From Hungatella effluvii (GTDB lineage Bacteria > Bacillota > Clostridia > Lachnospirales > Lachnospiraceae): DNA of 64,000 nucleotides. The notes below the pieces were generated by a model. It saw only the letters and a program-made list of their open reading frames with translations, did no database searches and was not told the origin of the DNA. Where the stretch lies: the NCBI RefSeq assembly GCF_003201875.1, contig NZ_QJKD01000015.1:1-64000 (forward strand), given 5' to 3'. The position numbers and the translations under genes were made by a program. Shown here one piece after another: positions 715 to 30,984 of this stretch. Every line of letters begins with the position of its first letter. The first letter of the stretch is position 1.

Positions 715-1359
715 TCAGTGCGTCTCACCGGCGCTGACACGGTCTGCCACTTTTTCGTCCACGATCGCCTCAATTGCATACTCAATCGATTTTTCGATTG
801 CCTCAAGGGTCATGGATGGCGTTCCCGCTGCCTTGTCAACTACCTGGCCGCTAGCGTATGGTACGTGAATAAAGCCGGCGCGGATATTGGGATAGCGCTT
901 CGCACACATATAAAGAACATTATACATCACTGCATTGCAGACATAGGTTCCTGCTGTATAGGAGATCGAGCAGGGCAGACCATGCTCCCGGACATTCTGC
1001 ATCATGGCCTTGACCGGCAGAGACGCAAAGTAAGCGTTCTCTCCGTCAGACTGAAGCAGCTCGTCCACCGGCTGCTCTCCCTGGTTGTCCGGAATTCTCG
1101 CATCTGCAAAGTTAATAGCCACCTTCTCAATGGTGACGCTGGCTCTTCCGCCTGCCTGGCCTACGTTCAGAACCACGTCAGGCTGATGCTGCCGGATTCC
1201 CTCTTCCACAGACGGGCCGCATTTAGAAAATACCGTGGGTATCTCCAGCTTGATGATCTCCGCACCATGTATGGTGTCTGGAAGAAGCTTCACCGCCTCA
1301 TACGCCGGATTTACTTTTTCTCCCCCAAAGGGGTCAAAACCTGTCACTAAAATCTTCAT
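715..1359 (-). CDS. pcp: Pyrrolidone-carboxylate peptidase (pyroglutamyl peptidase I)
   Basis: Cytoplasmic cysteine peptidase (family C15) that removes N-terminal pyroglutamate from peptides. The 214-residue length matches the family. Visible marks: N-terminal [13 protein letters not shown], the catalytic-Cys region [11 protein letters not shown] (about residue 142), and IHVPY containing the catalytic His (about residue 166). It lies downstream of the M29-like peptidase and the DUF969/DUF979 membrane pair on the same strand. Pcp with DUF969/DUF979 is a recurrent neighbourhood in Firmicutes, which suggests the membrane proteins move the pyroglutamyl substrate or product. The start is the first ATG with the family N-terminus. 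A 165-base palindromic element separates it from the preceding gene. Confidence 0.95.
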
Positions 1360-1427: not shown

Positions 1428-1592
1428 CTAGTACTGCATTGCGTAAATTCCTGTGATATAGCACTCGCTATCTACGCCAGGAGCACGCCCGCGAAGCTAA
1501 CCGTAGGATCCACTACGCCGTCGCTCCGCGGACGCACACCTGACGCAGATATCAAGCACTATATCACAGTTATTTACGCAATGCAGTACTAG
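1428..1592. repeat. Long palindromic element, family B, copy 1
   Basis: The terminal 21 bases (1428-1448 and 1572-1592, beginning CTAGTACTGCATTGCG) are perfect inverted repeats. Pairing continues imperfectly through nearly the whole element (CTGTGATATAG with its complement, then ATCTACGCCAGG with a near-complement) to a centre near GGATCC. A second copy lies at 29465-29630. The right end supplies the TAG stop codon of the M29-like peptidase gene. No open frame is present, so this is a non-autonomous or structural repeat. Confidence 0.85.
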
Positions 1593-2572
1593 AAAAACAC
1601 AGGTTCCGGTATGATAATTCTCCCCTGCTGAATCAGCTGGCGGTTGTCCGCAAAGAGGTTCGGTTCCCTCGCTACCAGATCAAAATGGCCGTTCGCCTCA
1701 TGGTTTCCGCCCAGCGCGATATTTCTGCCCAGGCCGATATGGAACGTACCGTAGGCGGACTCGTCCTCAATGTAACACCGGCCGGCGCACTGGGAGTAGG
1801 AATTTAAACCGATCCCCAGCTCGCCCGCCACATAGATTCCGGAATCGTGATAGCCTTCCATATACTCCTTCAGGCGTTTACCTGTGGGAGTCTCCTCGAT
1901 CTCCACGATTCGTCCCTCTTTGAAGACGACCCGGGTATCTTCCCTGGCCGCTCCGATATAGCCCAGAGAACCGTCGATCACCATCGTTCCATTGGTACCG
2001 CATTCCTCCACGGGAATATAGACCTCTATGCTGGCCGAGGAAAATCCGCCTCCATCTGCAGTTACCCCGTTGAAAAATCCGGGCATTCTTCCTCTCTTCA
2101 TCAGGGTCAGGTCCGTTCCCGCATCCGTCTTGATCTGGATGTGGGACGAGGACTTTAAGTATTTCATAATTACTTCTGCTGTCAGTTTCGACTTCTTAAC
2201 GTCCATTTTCAGGAAATCAAAGGTCAGCATGGATTGTCCGTTATTGGTGGAAAGGGGCAGAGAGAGAAACTTTGCCCGGCGCTTTATCACATTTCTGGCC
2301 GCCTTCGTCGTCACAAGGCTGTACTCCGTAGCCGCAAGCACCGCGTTGTAAGAATCAAAGATATCGGGATGCTGGTCAAAGAAGACGCCCACATGCTGTC
2401 CCTGACGTTCTACCAGCAGAATACTGACCGCGTGGGTGCGTTTTTCCGCCTGACGCTTTAATACCTCCGCTTCGGCCATGTTCTTCTCCCCTGCCACGAT
2501 CATGAGGCGGTCCCAGGGCTTCAGCTTCAGCCACCGGTTAATAATAATTTTTGCTCCTTCTTCCAGTTCCAT
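1589..2572 (-). CDS. M29-family-like aminopeptidase (AmpS/PepT-like)
   Basis: 327 residues resembling the COG2309 leucyl aminopeptidase/aminopeptidase T group, cytoplasmic metallo-enzymes. The C-terminal third has the conserved metal-binding style: ELGIGLN, an acidic stretch IEDESAYGTFHIGLG and GGNHEANGHFD, which provide Glu/His/Asp ligands. It sits between a DUF979 membrane protein and pcp, so it could trim peptides that pcp then unblocks, or the reverse. The last residues PVFF and the TAG stop lie at the edge of palindromic element B, so the native C-terminus may have been altered by the insertion. Some members of this fold are not peptidases (NicX-like dioxygenases), so the substrate is uncertain. 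Confidence 0.75.
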   Translation of the reverse strand: MELEEGAKIIINRWLKLKPWDRLMIVAGEKNMAEAEVLKRQAEKRTHAVSILLVERQGQHVGVFFDQHPDIFDSYNAVLAATEYSLVTTKAARNVIKRRAKFLSLPLSTNNGQSMLTFDFLKMDVKKSKLTAEVIMKYLKSSSHIQIKTDAGTDLTLMKRGRMPGFFNGVTADGGGFSSASIEVYIPVEECGTNGTMVIDGSLGYIGAAREDTRVVFKEGRIVEIEETPTGKRLKEYMEGYHDSGIYVAGELGIGLNSYSQCAGRCYIEDESAYGTFHIGLGRNIALGGNHEANGHFDLVAREPNLFADNRQLIQQGRIIIPEPVFF

Positions 2573-4359: not shown

Positions 4360-4449
4360 CCGGAATACCAGCGCCGCTCCACCGTCTTTTCGGGATTCGC
4401 GTCGGTATTTCCCCCTCCTTATCACAATTCGGAGCAGGGAAAAACAGAA

Positions 4450-4523
4450 AAAGATATCCACAGAATACATTCTGAAAGAGCCGTAAACTTCTCTCTCAGT
4501 AGATATTCTGTGGATATCTTTTA
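4450..4523 (-). terminator. Large hairpin / terminator with perfect 19-base arms
   Basis: AAAAGATATCCACAGAATA at 4450-4468 is exactly complementary to 4505-4523. On the minus strand the hairpin is followed by TTTTTCTGTTTTT, so it can terminate the small gene at 4576-4845. The arms are unusually long for a terminator and the loop is 36 bases, so it may also be a palindromic repeat. Confidence 0.65.
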
Positions 4524-8802: not shown

Positions 8803-8813
8803 TGTATACAGCC

Positions 8814-8911
8814 CCATGGCTTCCGTGCAGTCCGGAGAGGGGTATGAACAGGAGCGAAGATGATTTCTTTTACCTGTCTATCCCCCGCTCTGGACTGCAC
8901 GGAAGCCATGG
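8814..8911. repeat. Palindromic element, family C
   Basis: Perfect 20-base arms CCATGGCTTCCGTGCAGTCC (8814-8833) and its complement (8892-8911), with further imperfect pairing inside (GGGGTATGAACAGG against CCTGTCTATCCCC). It begins 21 bases after the stop of the 80-residue gene and precedes the GNAT remnant. No T-run follows on the minus strand. Confidence 0.75.
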
Positions 8912-8932
8912 AGCGTTACCATTCTTACCTAT

Positions 8933-28377: not shown

Positions 28378-29442
28378 TCATTTGCTTAAGTCTCCAAGTA
28401 TCTCCTTCTCCGCAAATAACGCTGTGGCCCCGCCCGTATGCCAGAACACCACATTACTTCCTGCCGGAACCTTTCCGGTCCTGATGTAATCCAGCATGCC
28501 CGCAAAGGCTTTTCCCGTATAGACCGGGTCTGTGAGAAGCCCTTCCTTCACCGCCAGAAGCTTAATCGCCTCGGACGCCGCCTCGTTGGGAATCTCATAG
28601 CCGGGCAGATAATAGTTTAAATCTGTGCAAATATCCCGCTCCGCATCCACCGTGATTCCGGCTCCGATCAGCTTTAGGCTCTCATTGGCCAGAGCGGCCG
28701 TTCGCTTCGGATACTCCGGGTCCTTGGCGCTGACATTGATGGAAATGATCCCGGTCTCAGAACCGACCAGGTTCCGTCCTGCAGCCAGACCAGCCATCGT
28801 ACCGCCGGTTCCGGTAGCATGGAAGACGTAATCGGCCTGGATATCCATGGCGGACAGCTGCTTCTCCAGCTCCACGTATCCCTCGATGAATCCCACAGAC
28901 CCCACCGGACTGGCTCCGCCCATGGGTACCTCATAGCAGACGTGTCTGCCGGCTTCCTTATTTAAGCGGGCCATGTGTTCTCTCGCAAGAAAGACGGCCC
29001 GGTCTTCCGCCTCTTCCTCTGTCTCTCCCGCCTGAATCTCCACGATGTGAACCTCGGCGTCCATGATGCGGTCCAGAAGCAGGTTAGCCCTCAGATCATC
29101 CTCATCCGGCTTCACAATGGCGACCAGATACAGCACCGGTTTTAAACCGCAGCGCCGGCACGCGGCGGCCGTTTGCATGGCGTGGTTTGACTGGGTCGCC
29201 CCAAAGGTGAAGACGTACTCACAGCCGCGGCTCATGGCGTCCCCCATCAGATACTGGAGTTTGCGCACCTTATTTCCCCCGAACAGGCTCATGCCGGTAA
29301 AATCGTCACGCTTGATATAGAGGTTTACTCCCAGTTCCTTCGAAAGCCGGTCCAGCCGGTAAAACGGCGTCGGGAAAAATCCCAGTTCCGCCTTGGGAAG
29401 TTTTTCAAATAATTTCTCCGCTTCTTTTGCTGTCATACTCAT
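28378..29442 (-). CDS. dcyD: PLP-dependent D-cysteine desulfhydrase / ACC deaminase family enzyme
   Basis: 354 residues, fold-type II PLP enzyme. The PLP lysine lies in [14 protein letters not shown] (about residue 57), followed by [20 protein letters not shown] (Ser/Asn phosphate and substrate contact) and the glycine loop [11 protein letters not shown]. These match DcyD (D-cysteine to pyruvate, sulfide, ammonia); ACC deaminase is the alternative within the same family. The N-terminus [15 protein letters not shown] is typical. GGAAGGAGC lies before the ATG. The upstream palindromic element B separates it from the MATE gene. Confidence 0.85.
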
Positions 29443-29464
29443 TGCTTTTTTGCTCCTTCCATTT

Positions 29465-29630
29465 TAGCACTGCATTGCGCAATAAACTGTAAATATAGCA
29501 CCCGCTATCTACGCCAGGAGCACGTCCGCAAAGCTAATCGTAGCGTCCACTACGCCGTCGCTTTGCAGACGCACACCTGACGCAGATATCAGGCACTCTA
29601 TTCACATTTTATTACGCAATGCAATGCTAG
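29465..29630. repeat. Long palindromic element, family B, copy 2
   Basis: Same architecture as 1428-1592: imperfect terminal inverted repeats built on GCATTGCG, an internal CTATCTACGCCAGGAGCACG shared almost exactly with copy 1, and a GACGCACACCTGACGCAGAT right half. The right arm encodes the last residues and stop of the MATE transporter. 166 bases against 165 in copy 1. Confidence 0.85.
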
Positions 29631-30984
29631 CAATAATCTTTTTAAAAGATACGCTGAACATGGCCACGGTAACACAAACAGCGCAGAAATCTGCGACCGG
29701 TTCGGCTAAGAACACGCCCATAGTCTTATTCTCCATAAAACGCGGAAGAATAAAGATCAGCGGGATCAGTAAAAATACCTTGCGCAGCAGAGCCAGAAAT
29801 ACGGATACTTTGGCATTTCCCAGCGCAATAAAGGTCTGCTGGCAGGCCACCTGTGCACCGAACATCAGGGAAACCGCCATATAAATCCGGATCGCCCAGC
29901 GCGTATATTCCGTCAGCGCTGCATCGCTGGTAAAAATCATGATGAAAATCTGCGGGAAGAACATGGACAGCGCCCACAGAAGCGTGGAATAGCCAATACA
30001 GCAGAGGAACAGGATCTTAAACGTCTTCTTCACGCGGTCCGCGCTGCCAGCCCCGTAGTTAAAGCTGACGATGGGCTGGGAGCCCTGGGTCAGTCCCTGA
30101 AGAGGAAGCATGGAAAACTGCATGACACTGCTCAGTATCGTCATGGCGCCTACCGCCACGTCTCCGCCGTAGCGAAGCAGGGATGAATTGAAGCAGACGG
30201 ACAGGATGCTTTCCGTAAACGCCATGATAAACGGCGATGTTCCCAATGCCATACAGGGAAGAATAATGCCTGCCTCCAGCTTCAGGCTCTTCTTTTTGAT
30301 GCGCAGCGAGCTCTTCTCCGAAGTGAGGAAGCGCAGCACCCAGATGGAGGAGACCGCCTGGGAAAGAATTGTCGCCAGCGCGGCTCCCTTCACGCCCATA
30401 TTCAGACCGAATATAAAGACAGGGTCCAGAATGATGTTGCAGACAGCTCCGATCAGCACGGTATACATGCTGGTCTTGGCATAGCCCTGGGCAGTGATAA
30501 ATGCATTCAGCCCCAGCGCCAGCTGTACGAAAATGGTTCCCAGCGCATATATCTTCATGTAATCCCAGGCATACCCGATCGTATTTTCACTGGCGCCGAA
30601 CAACAGCAGGATGGAACGCCCGCAGAACAGGAAGACCGCAGTCAGGATCAGGGCAAGTACCACCAGCATCGTGGTACAGTTACCCAGAATCTTCTCCGCC
30701 TTCTCCTTCTCATTTCTCCCCATCATGATGGAGGACCGCGGCGCGCCTCCCATGCTGATAAAATAGGCAAATGCGGTGATCGCCATGATAACCGGCATCG
30801 TAACGCCGACTCCCGTCAGGGCTGCCGCTCCGACTCCGGGAATATGGCCGATATACATACGGTCAACCATGTTGTACATAACATTGATCACCTGTGCCGC
30901 AATAGCGGGCATAGACAGCCGGAAAAGCAGCTTTCCGACGCTCTCGGTCCCCAGTTCATTCTCTTTTCCTTTTTTTGGTTCCAT
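29602..30984 (-). CDS. MATE family efflux transporter
   Basis: 460-residue, 12-helix inner-membrane antiporter of the MATE superfamily. Marks: SVGKLLFRLSMPAIAAQVINVMY with a conserved N-terminus, GVGVTMPVIM, and the internal repeat half (QGSQPIVSFNYGAGSADRVKK). Exports cationic drugs or metabolites by Na+ or H+ exchange. It begins immediately after the marR stop codon, so the two form an operon driven by the promoter at 31479-31507. The last nine residues (SIALRNKM plus stop) are encoded by palindromic element B. Confidence 0.93.
   Translation of the reverse strand: MEPKKGKENELGTESVGKLLFRLSMPAIAAQVINVMYNMVDRMYIGHIPGVGAAALTGVGVTMPVIMAITAFAYFISMGGAPRSSIMMGRNEKEKAEKILGNCTTMLVVLALILTAVFLFCGRSILLLFGASENTIGYAWDYMKIYALGTIFVQLALGLNAFITAQGYAKTSMYTVLIGAVCNIILDPVFIFGLNMGVKGAALATILSQAVSSIWVLRFLTSEKSSLRIKKKSLKLEAGIILPCMALGTSPFIMAFTESILSVCFNSSLLRYGGDVAVGAMTILSSVMQFSMLPLQGLTQGSQPIVSFNYGAGSADRVKKTFKILFLCCIGYSTLLWALSMFFPQIFIMIFTSDAALTEYTRWAIRIYMAVSLMFGAQVACQQTFIALGNAKVSVFLALLRKVFLLIPLIFILPRFMENKTMGVFLAEPVADFCAVCVTVAMFSVSFKKIIASIALRNKM

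What the first reader, a model, noticed from the sequence alone, without database searches (positions are those of the whole stretch)
1428..1592. Full-length palindromic repeat, two copies, each creating the 3' end of a gene
Copy 1 here and copy 2 at 29465-29630 are each about 165 bases and palindromic almost throughout. Copy 1 supplies the M29-like stop codon; copy 2 encodes the last nine residues and stop of the MATE transporter. A mobile element that lands at 3' ends and repairs or replaces them is unusual. The transcript would form a stem of up to about 80 pairs.
Basis: partly seen in the sequence, partly recalled or inferred. Interest (0 to 1): 0.65.

Follow-up and report, generated by a model that had tools for sequence, protein, structure and literature searches.

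The report
Mobile RNA-like hairpins in gut bacteria
The two palindromes are copies of a small jumping hairpin scattered through the genome of a gut bacterium; it alters the ends of genes only as a side effect of where it lands, and its odd feature is that it folds almost perfectly only as the RNA (or single strand) of one of its two strands.

Summary
The palindromes are real: two of at least 30 full-size (159-167 bp) copies in this 6.86-Mb genome. The core also occurs in 15 named assemblies. A congener shows mobility: at 26 of 43 own sites that I aligned it lacks the element. 14 have no gap within 3 nt of the junction, so no target duplication; insertion looks blunt at YY^RR, mostly CT^AG. Copy 2 replaced the last eight MATE residues. 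Copy 1's stop survives when the flanks are joined, so it need not come from the element. A mechanism that repairs 3' ends is not supported.

The surprising part: 61 copies covary over 71 pairs, yet mismatches on one strand are mostly G.T/G.U (mean 10.4), rarely A.C (1.0). That strand's RNA folds better in 61 of 61, -114 versus -79 kcal/mol. F2, a family with unrelated arms but similar size, sites and apical motif, shows the bias in 19 of 19; family F3 does not. I infer a hairpin element acting as RNA or single-stranded DNA, moved in trans by an unidentified enzyme.

The parts
1428..1592 (-). Copy 1 of the palindromic element (F1 family); sense (better-folding) strand is minus; flanking YY/RR dinucleotides included, element proper 1430-1590
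29464..29630 (-). Copy 2 of the element; sense strand minus; element proper 29466-29628
1502..1519 (-). Apical motif GGCGTAGTGGATCCTACG of copy 1, similar to the apical motif of families F2 and F4
29539..29556 (-). Apical motif GGCGTAGTGGACGCTACG of copy 2
1589..2572 (-). M29-like peptidase gene; its TAG stop lies in the CTAG at the junction with copy 1 and is kept when the flanks are joined
29602..30984 (-). MATE transporter gene; its last eight residues SIALRNKM and its stop are read from copy 2. Without the element the flanks read KMEGAKKQ and stop; the congener has RMEGGKK and stop at the same place
28378..29442 (-). PLP-dependent enzyme gene downstream of MATE; in the joined-flank reading the MATE stop overlaps its start (ATGA)
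715..1359 (-). Pyroglutamyl peptidase (C15) gene on the other side of copy 1

Best explanation
The two copies belong to a non-autonomous mobile element, F1, about 161 bp between its flanking YY and RR dinucleotides and palindromic end to end. Shown: it is dispersed, absent from the same sites in a congener, and at 14 clean sites inserted without target duplication. Shown: the pairing of one particular strand is kept, with conserved G.U wobbles, while the DNA duplex stays an imperfect palindrome. Shown: a second family (F2) with unrelated arms has a similar size, the same YY^RR flanks, the same strand bias and a similar apical motif; F4, of which I tested two copies, looks alike. Inferred: the working form is a ~160-nt hairpin of that strand, more likely RNA than single-stranded DNA, recognised through the apical motif by one enzyme that acts in trans on these families. 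Inferred: the DNA mismatches spare the element the instability of long perfect palindromes (established knowledge, not tested). The effect on MATE and on other gene ends is a by-product of landing in CTAG-like sites downstream of genes.
For: At least 30 full-size copies in G000; 5 matches in congener G001 and 2 in G016, the only others among 61 genomes searched, G000 included; 59 stretches in 15 assemblies. Empty sites: 26 of 43 own sites aligned in G001, 14 without a gap within 3 nt of the junction. Covariation: 42 of 71 pairs with changes on both sides; 498 such cells against 151 +/- 12 in shuffles (0 of 500 as high) and 64-87 when partners are slid. Strand bias: F1 61 of 61, F2 19 of 19; F4 copies L191 and L122 have G.T 8 and 6, A.C 1 and 1. 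F2 flanks: left YY 18 of 19, right RR 19 of 19. The sense strand is that of the upstream gene in only 10 of 29 copies (p = 0.14), which argues that the fold serves the element and not a host 3' UTR.
Against: No enzyme was recognised next to any copy, and Y1 and reverse-transcriptase genes of the genome carry no similar hairpin in the flanks fetched. DNA folding parameters also favour the sense strand (-59.6 against -43.0, lower in 61 of 61), so RNA is not separated from single-stranded DNA. 12 of the 26 aligned sites have indels at the junction or larger differences, so bluntness is not shown for them; in 3 of the 14 clean ones (L019, L022, L041) a gap lies 4-6 nt away. At the 14 clean sites the four junction bases differ from the congener far more than their neighbours do (22 of 56 against 38 of 280, p = 3e-5): the terminal dinucleotides may be altered or supplied on insertion, or CTAG is short-lived (0.22 of expectation in the window). 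F3 does not show the wobble bias (G.T 2 and 3, A.C 3 and 3), though its sense strand still folds somewhat better. Copies share ancestry, so counts of copies are not independent events.
Confidence: 0.6

Rival explanations
1. Single-stranded DNA transposition in trans by a Y1 (HUH) transposase of the IS200/IS605 or RAYT kind: one strand folds, is cut after a pyrimidine dinucleotide at both ends and is joined into a single-stranded target, hence no duplication and strand-specific structure.
For: No target duplication at 14 sites; strand-specific fold also with DNA parameters; Y1 transposase genes exist in the genome.
Against: The Y1 matches (4, at 3 places; two with a stop inside, one split in two) carry no similar hairpin in the ~1.5 kb fetched on each side. 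Both flanks are constrained (YY and RR), which a one-sided Y1 target does not predict. Conserved wobbles at fixed pairs look more like RNA.
Confidence: 0.27
2. Retroposition: the hairpin is transcribed and copied into DNA by a host reverse transcriptase, a bacterial counterpart of SINEs.
For: Sense RNA folds at -114 on average, 71 consensus pairs, fixed G.U wobbles; no target duplication, some sites with small deletions. The genome has two reverse transcriptases. The smaller has close homologues (E < 1e-30) in 5 of 14 tested genomes with F1 or F2 and in 0 of 16 for which searches listed neither.
Against: That reverse transcriptase lies behind a conserved retron-type leader (my reading), so it already has a template of its own; the correlation is confounded by descent, and 9 of the 14 genomes lack a close homologue. 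No promoter, tail or priming signature was shown. A symmetric blunt YY^RR site is not typical of target-primed copying.
Confidence: 0.25
3. Ordinary MITE: an internally deleted DDE insertion sequence (for example IS630- or IS5-like, both recalled as using CTAG-type sites) moved by the parent's transposase.
For: Terminal inverted repeats, CTAG-like sites, deletion derivatives of 30-74 bp with the same ends.
Against: No target duplication at the 14 clean sites; CC..GG flanks exclude a TA or CTAG duplication there. No longer element with these ends was seen. The structure covaries through the whole length, which a deleted transposon would not keep.
Confidence: 0.12
4. A host-conserved RNA or terminator at gene 3' ends.
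For: Strong conserved hairpin; 29 of 30 copies have at least one gene 3' end beside them by rough ORF calls.
Against: Sites are empty in the congener; the strand of the fold is that of the upstream gene in only 10 of 29; no Rfam family at its threshold.
Confidence: 0.03

Closest known systems
Rickettsia palindromic elements (RPE)
   Same: 105-150 bp palindromes with long RNA stem-loops, several families, dispersed, also inside reading frames (passages of PMC2229807, and PMC10969869)
   Different: Here blunt insertion at YY^RR and a strand-specific wobble bias are shown, and a similar apical motif occurs in families with unrelated arms; I held no RPE sequences to test for the same bias
ERIC/RU-1 and YPAL/RU-2
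   Same: Repeats of 127 bp (ERIC, abstract in the listing) and ~168 bp (YPAL, passages of PMC2229807), found between genes
   Different: The review says most such repeats, ERIC included in its table, have TA ends and target duplications, and YPAL duplications of 3-26 bp; none at the 14 clean sites here
REP/BIME with RAYT (Y1) transposases
   Same: Palindromes that fold as a single strand; IS200/IS605 transposases make no larger target duplication (passages of PMC2817692)
   Different: REPs are 20-40 bp (abstract of PMC3733652) with a GT(A/G)G head; these are ~161 bp with no such head, and no Y1 gene carries a similar hairpin here
IS110/IS621 with bridge RNA
   Same: A structured RNA and a CT core (passages of PMC11208160)
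   Different: No recombinase gene in the element; a nearly fully paired hairpin instead of target- and donor-binding loops; both flanks constrained

Membership tests
MITE of a DDE insertion sequence | Target-site duplication | tested here: not met
   14 of 26 aligned sites have no gap within 3 nt of the junction when flanks are joined without any duplication; the other 12 are undecided
MITE of a DDE insertion sequence | A parental insertion sequence with the same ends | tested here: not met
   Hits to the end pattern in G000 that I read are palindromes or remnants; no convincing long partner in the fetched flanks of 12 lone ends, about 2.5 kb for most. A diverged parent is not excluded
MITE of a DDE insertion sequence | Terminal inverted repeats | tested here: met
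REP/RAYT | 20-40 bp palindrome with GT(A/G)G head | tested here: not met
REP/RAYT | Associated Y1 transposase flanked by the repeat | tested here: not met
   4 PF01797 matches at 3 places, none with a similar hairpin in the flanks fetched
Rickettsia palindromic elements | Dispersed ~100-150 bp palindromes, also within genes | tested here: met
   (works alike; slightly longer; descent not claimed)
Rickettsia palindromic elements | Sequence or structural homology to an RPE family | not tested
   No RPE sequence was fetched; a primary paper is not held
Rfam families | Match at the curated threshold | tested here: not met
   Window at gathering: two tRNAs only. Permissive search of copy 1: best weak matches are generic hairpins such as mir-1956 (E 0.034) and RT-13 (E 0.14, 19.6 bits against 69.1); one F2 copy: nothing better than E 8
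Retroelement | RNA intermediate copied by a reverse transcriptase | not testable with these tools
   two reverse transcriptases in the genome, neither with an element in its fetched flanks

The most novel reading that the evidence does not exclude
A superfamily of bacterial short retroposons: ~160-nt hairpin RNAs with unrelated arms but a similar apical recognition motif, copied into DNA and inserted bluntly at YY^RR by a host reverse transcriptase acting in trans, with G.U wobbles that make the RNA a nearly perfect hairpin while keeping the DNA palindrome imperfect and stable.
Probability: 0.22. Interest if true: 0.9.

Novelty: new variant of a known kind. Interest (0 to 1): 0.6.

Why it matters
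A 2007 review seen in passages says that small bacterial repeats are thought to move by transposases but that there was no experimental support (PMC2229807). This system offers several families per genome, insertions with readable empty sites, and a strand-specific structural signature which says that the moving or recognised form is one strand, probably RNA. That makes the mechanism testable in gut anaerobes, and the wobble test can be applied to RPE, ERIC and other older repeat families. The elements also change protein C-termini and separate neighbouring genes, as at MATE.

Tried and rejected
Linked enzyme: clustering of 2,323 ORFs around copies gave clusters led by ordinary families; Pfam on 9 cluster representatives gave transporters, regulators, a kinase, an aminotransferase-type regulator and a Uma2-type nuclease with HTH. 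A further cluster, seen in 4 loci, is AAA-ATPase_like plus PDDEXK_9 nuclease; I recall such genes as common in these bacteria and did not test it as the enzyme. Clusters below the top 40 were not read. A conserved TATAACCC flank looked like the end of an insertion sequence but is the end of palindrome F4. In G203 an F2-like copy lies just upstream of the retron-type reverse transcriptase, between a conserved leader and the gene; G203 had 229 first-look candidates, so I treat it as chance.

Asymmetric target: at 11 oriented clean sites the congener has YY on the 5' side in 11 and RR on the 3' side in 8 (read). I first took this for priming (notebook), but filled F2 copies show both sides constrained, and I dropped it.

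Vehicles: exact core and F2-end patterns gave 0 stretches in viral contigs and copy 1 had no match in plasmids; exact patterns miss diverged copies.

Limits: the family-wide flank search scored only 2 candidates per genome; searches scored 40 of 53 and 40 of 86 candidates in G000. Two further sites (L028, L053) had weaker G001 matches that I did not align. Gene contexts rest on a longest-ORF model; in 6 of 30 copies (L003, L014, L016, L021, L027, L033) a neighbour ORF overlaps the element by 111-165 nt and may be spurious. The genome is flagged 10% contaminated.

Print: six searches listed nothing that I recognised as these repeats; the library holds open-licence papers only, and of most listed papers I saw title and abstract start only.

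Full report
Observation. Copy 1 (1428-1592) and copy 2 (29464-29630) are palindromes with arms of 71 and 70 nt, 82% and 79% complementary, 25 nt apart. Read from the + strand they fold far better than shuffles.

Copies. A search of the window's own genome found 30 places with the core (40 of 53 candidates scored), 159 to 167 bp long. The inner part matches copy 1 best; the outer arms come in at least four types: 21 copies like the window's, 4 with AGTGCCGCCGGAC-like ends, 4 with AGTGCCTCCCGG-like ends and 1 with GGACAGAATTGC ends. 13 shorter derivatives of 30 to 74 bp keep the same ends. Congener G001 has 5 matches, some partial, and G016 has 2; no other of 61 genomes, G000 included, had one. 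An exact core pattern found 59 stretches in 15 named assemblies, most labelled Hungatella, Lachnospiraceae, Clostridiaceae or Clostridiales. Viral contigs and plasmids gave none.

Mobility and insertion site. I joined the flanks of 43 own copies, 30 full-size and 13 short, elements left out, and searched G001. I aligned 26 across the junction; G001 lacks the element at these. 14 of 26 have no gap within 3 nt of the junction (6), which leaves no room for a target duplication; in 3 of them a gap lies 4-6 nt away. The other 12 have indels or larger differences. One G001 copy against the empty site in the own genome shows a 3-base difference. Filled copies have YY on the left and RR on the right: among 66 rows, five of them misread ends or broken contigs that I kept in the count (L003, L026, L068, L105, L109), the outer bases are C 61 and T 56 on the left, A 53 and G 59 on the right. 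CC..GG flanks rule out a TA or CTAG duplication at those copies. At the 14 clean sites 22 of 56 junction bases differ from G001, against 38 of 280 within 3-12 nt (p = 3e-5). Either terminal bases change on insertion, or CTAG is short-lived: the window has 7 CTAG, 0.22 of the second-order expectation, 3 of the 7 being element ends; in other own regions, chosen for their elements, it is 59 against 106 expected.

The two genes. In G001 the MATE protein ends FKKILARMEGGKK. The window flanks joined without copy 2 give [14 protein letters not shown], with a stop that overlaps the start of the next gene; with copy 2 it ends FKKIIASIALRNKM. So copy 2 replaced eight residues and separated two overlapping genes. 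For copy 1, joined flanks keep the same TAG, and G001 has no match to the M29-like protein, so creation of the stop is not shown.

Placement. By a longest-ORF model 25 of 30 copies lie between genes on the same strand, 4 between convergent and 1 between divergent genes; expected shares by intergenic length in the window are 0.62, 0.20 and 0.18 (p = 0.014, 0.49 and 0.03). 10 of 30 contain the upstream gene's stop within ~35 bases, 4 of these in the CTAG itself. This fits avoidance of promoters and a CTAG-like site, with no need for a 3'-end mechanism.

Structure. 61 full copies from this genome, G001 and the named assemblies were aligned in one orientation; of the 62 coordinates, L102 was left out and L003 re-bounded. 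The consensus has 71 pairs. 96.0% of cells pair, 42 pairs have changes on both sides, and 498 cells have such changes against 151 +/- 12 in shuffles and 64-87 with slid partners. The structure was predicted from this same alignment, which favours it over the slid versions; copies are related, which weakens the shuffle control.

Strand bias. Seven pairs are mostly the same wobble, UG or GU in 47 to 57 of 61 copies, at columns 36-133, 37-132, 40-129, 51-118, 58-111, 59-110 and 62-107, and an eighth (48-121) in 32. Over whole arms the sense strand has 10.4 G.T and 1.0 A.C oppositions on average, G.T ahead in 61 of 61. Its RNA folds at -114.4 on average against -79.0 for the other strand, better in 61 of 61. 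Arm-to-arm gene conversion would remove such mismatches and does not explain them. DNA parameters give the same sign (-59.6 and -43.0), so single-stranded DNA remains possible. The sense strand is that of the upstream gene in only 10 of 29 copies (p = 0.14).

Other families. F2 (ends AGAGCGTGTTTGAAAA) has at least 11 places in this genome and F4 (ends AGTAT.ACC) at least 3 (40 of 86 candidates scored). F2 ends were also listed for at least 12 other genomes of the family. Of 19 F2 copies caught by a pattern of both ends, 18 are 162 bp and 1 is 161; the left flank is YY in 18 of 19 and the right RR in 19 of 19. Their sense strand, set by the apical motif, folds at -102.1 against -66.0, better in 19 of 19, with 7.8 G.T and 1.2 A.C. 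F2 and F4 carry an apical motif like F1's, GGCGTAGTGG..CTACG, on the sense strand; that pattern has 26 matches in the genome and its reversed control none. F3, with a related-looking apical stretch, does not show the wobble bias in the two copies tested.

Enzyme. No transposase was recognised among genes that recur beside copies, though one recurrent family carries a nuclease domain and was not tested further. PF01797 gave 4 matches at 3 places, none with a similar hairpin nearby. PF00078 gave 2 reverse transcriptases: one of group II intron type and one next to an EPSP synthase gene, neither with an element in its fetched flanks. The latter has close homologues (E < 1e-30) in 5 of 14 genomes with F1 or F2 and 0 of 16 for which searches listed neither. 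In G000, G001, G203 and G277 it follows what I read as a conserved retron leader, and related genomes may share it by descent, so this is a lead and no more.

Conclusion. A mobile, non-autonomous hairpin element with a one-strand structure that is kept, and duplication-free insertion at YY^RR. RNA as the working form is my preference, single-stranded DNA the close rival. Comparison with RPE, ERIC, YPAL and REP rests on review passages and abstracts and shows similar kinds but not this set of features; six searches listed no paper that I recognised as describing these repeats.

Noticed in passing
L031 4859-5024; L102 4177-4342; L222 1235-1558: F2, a second palindromic family (CTAGAGCGTGTTTGAAAATT ends), listed for many Lachnospiraceae genomes and often beside F1 copies
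   Followed up: partly
L191 (minus strand), L122, L078, L260: F4, a third palindromic family with AGTAT.ACC ends and a similar apical motif
   Followed up: partly
L039 and L107: F3, palindromes with GCGGAGTGG / GCGATGCGGTGG apical stretches that lack the wobble bias
   Followed up: partly
L292 1335-1499: An F2-like copy lies between a conserved retron-type leader and the start of a retron-type reverse transcriptase in G203
   Followed up: partly
L290 1228-2500 minus; also L291, L292, L293: A chromosomal retron-type locus (leader plus 342-aa reverse transcriptase), beside an EPSP synthase gene in the own genome, with homologues in several genera
   Followed up: partly
L021 1499-1665: An F1 copy appears to interrupt an AraC-type regulator; the joined flanks read through in frame
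   Followed up: partly
L076 1757-3493 minus; L065, L068, L103: An AAA-ATPase_like / PDDEXK_9 nuclease gene family recurs near F1 copies in 4 loci; not tested for any link
   Followed up: no
window 8811-8914 and 4449-4522: Two further inverted repeats (42-nt and 32-nt arms) of unknown nature
   Followed up: no
window 1-64000: CTAG occurs only 7 times, 0.22 of the Markov expectation, the most avoided 4-base palindrome here
   Followed up: partly
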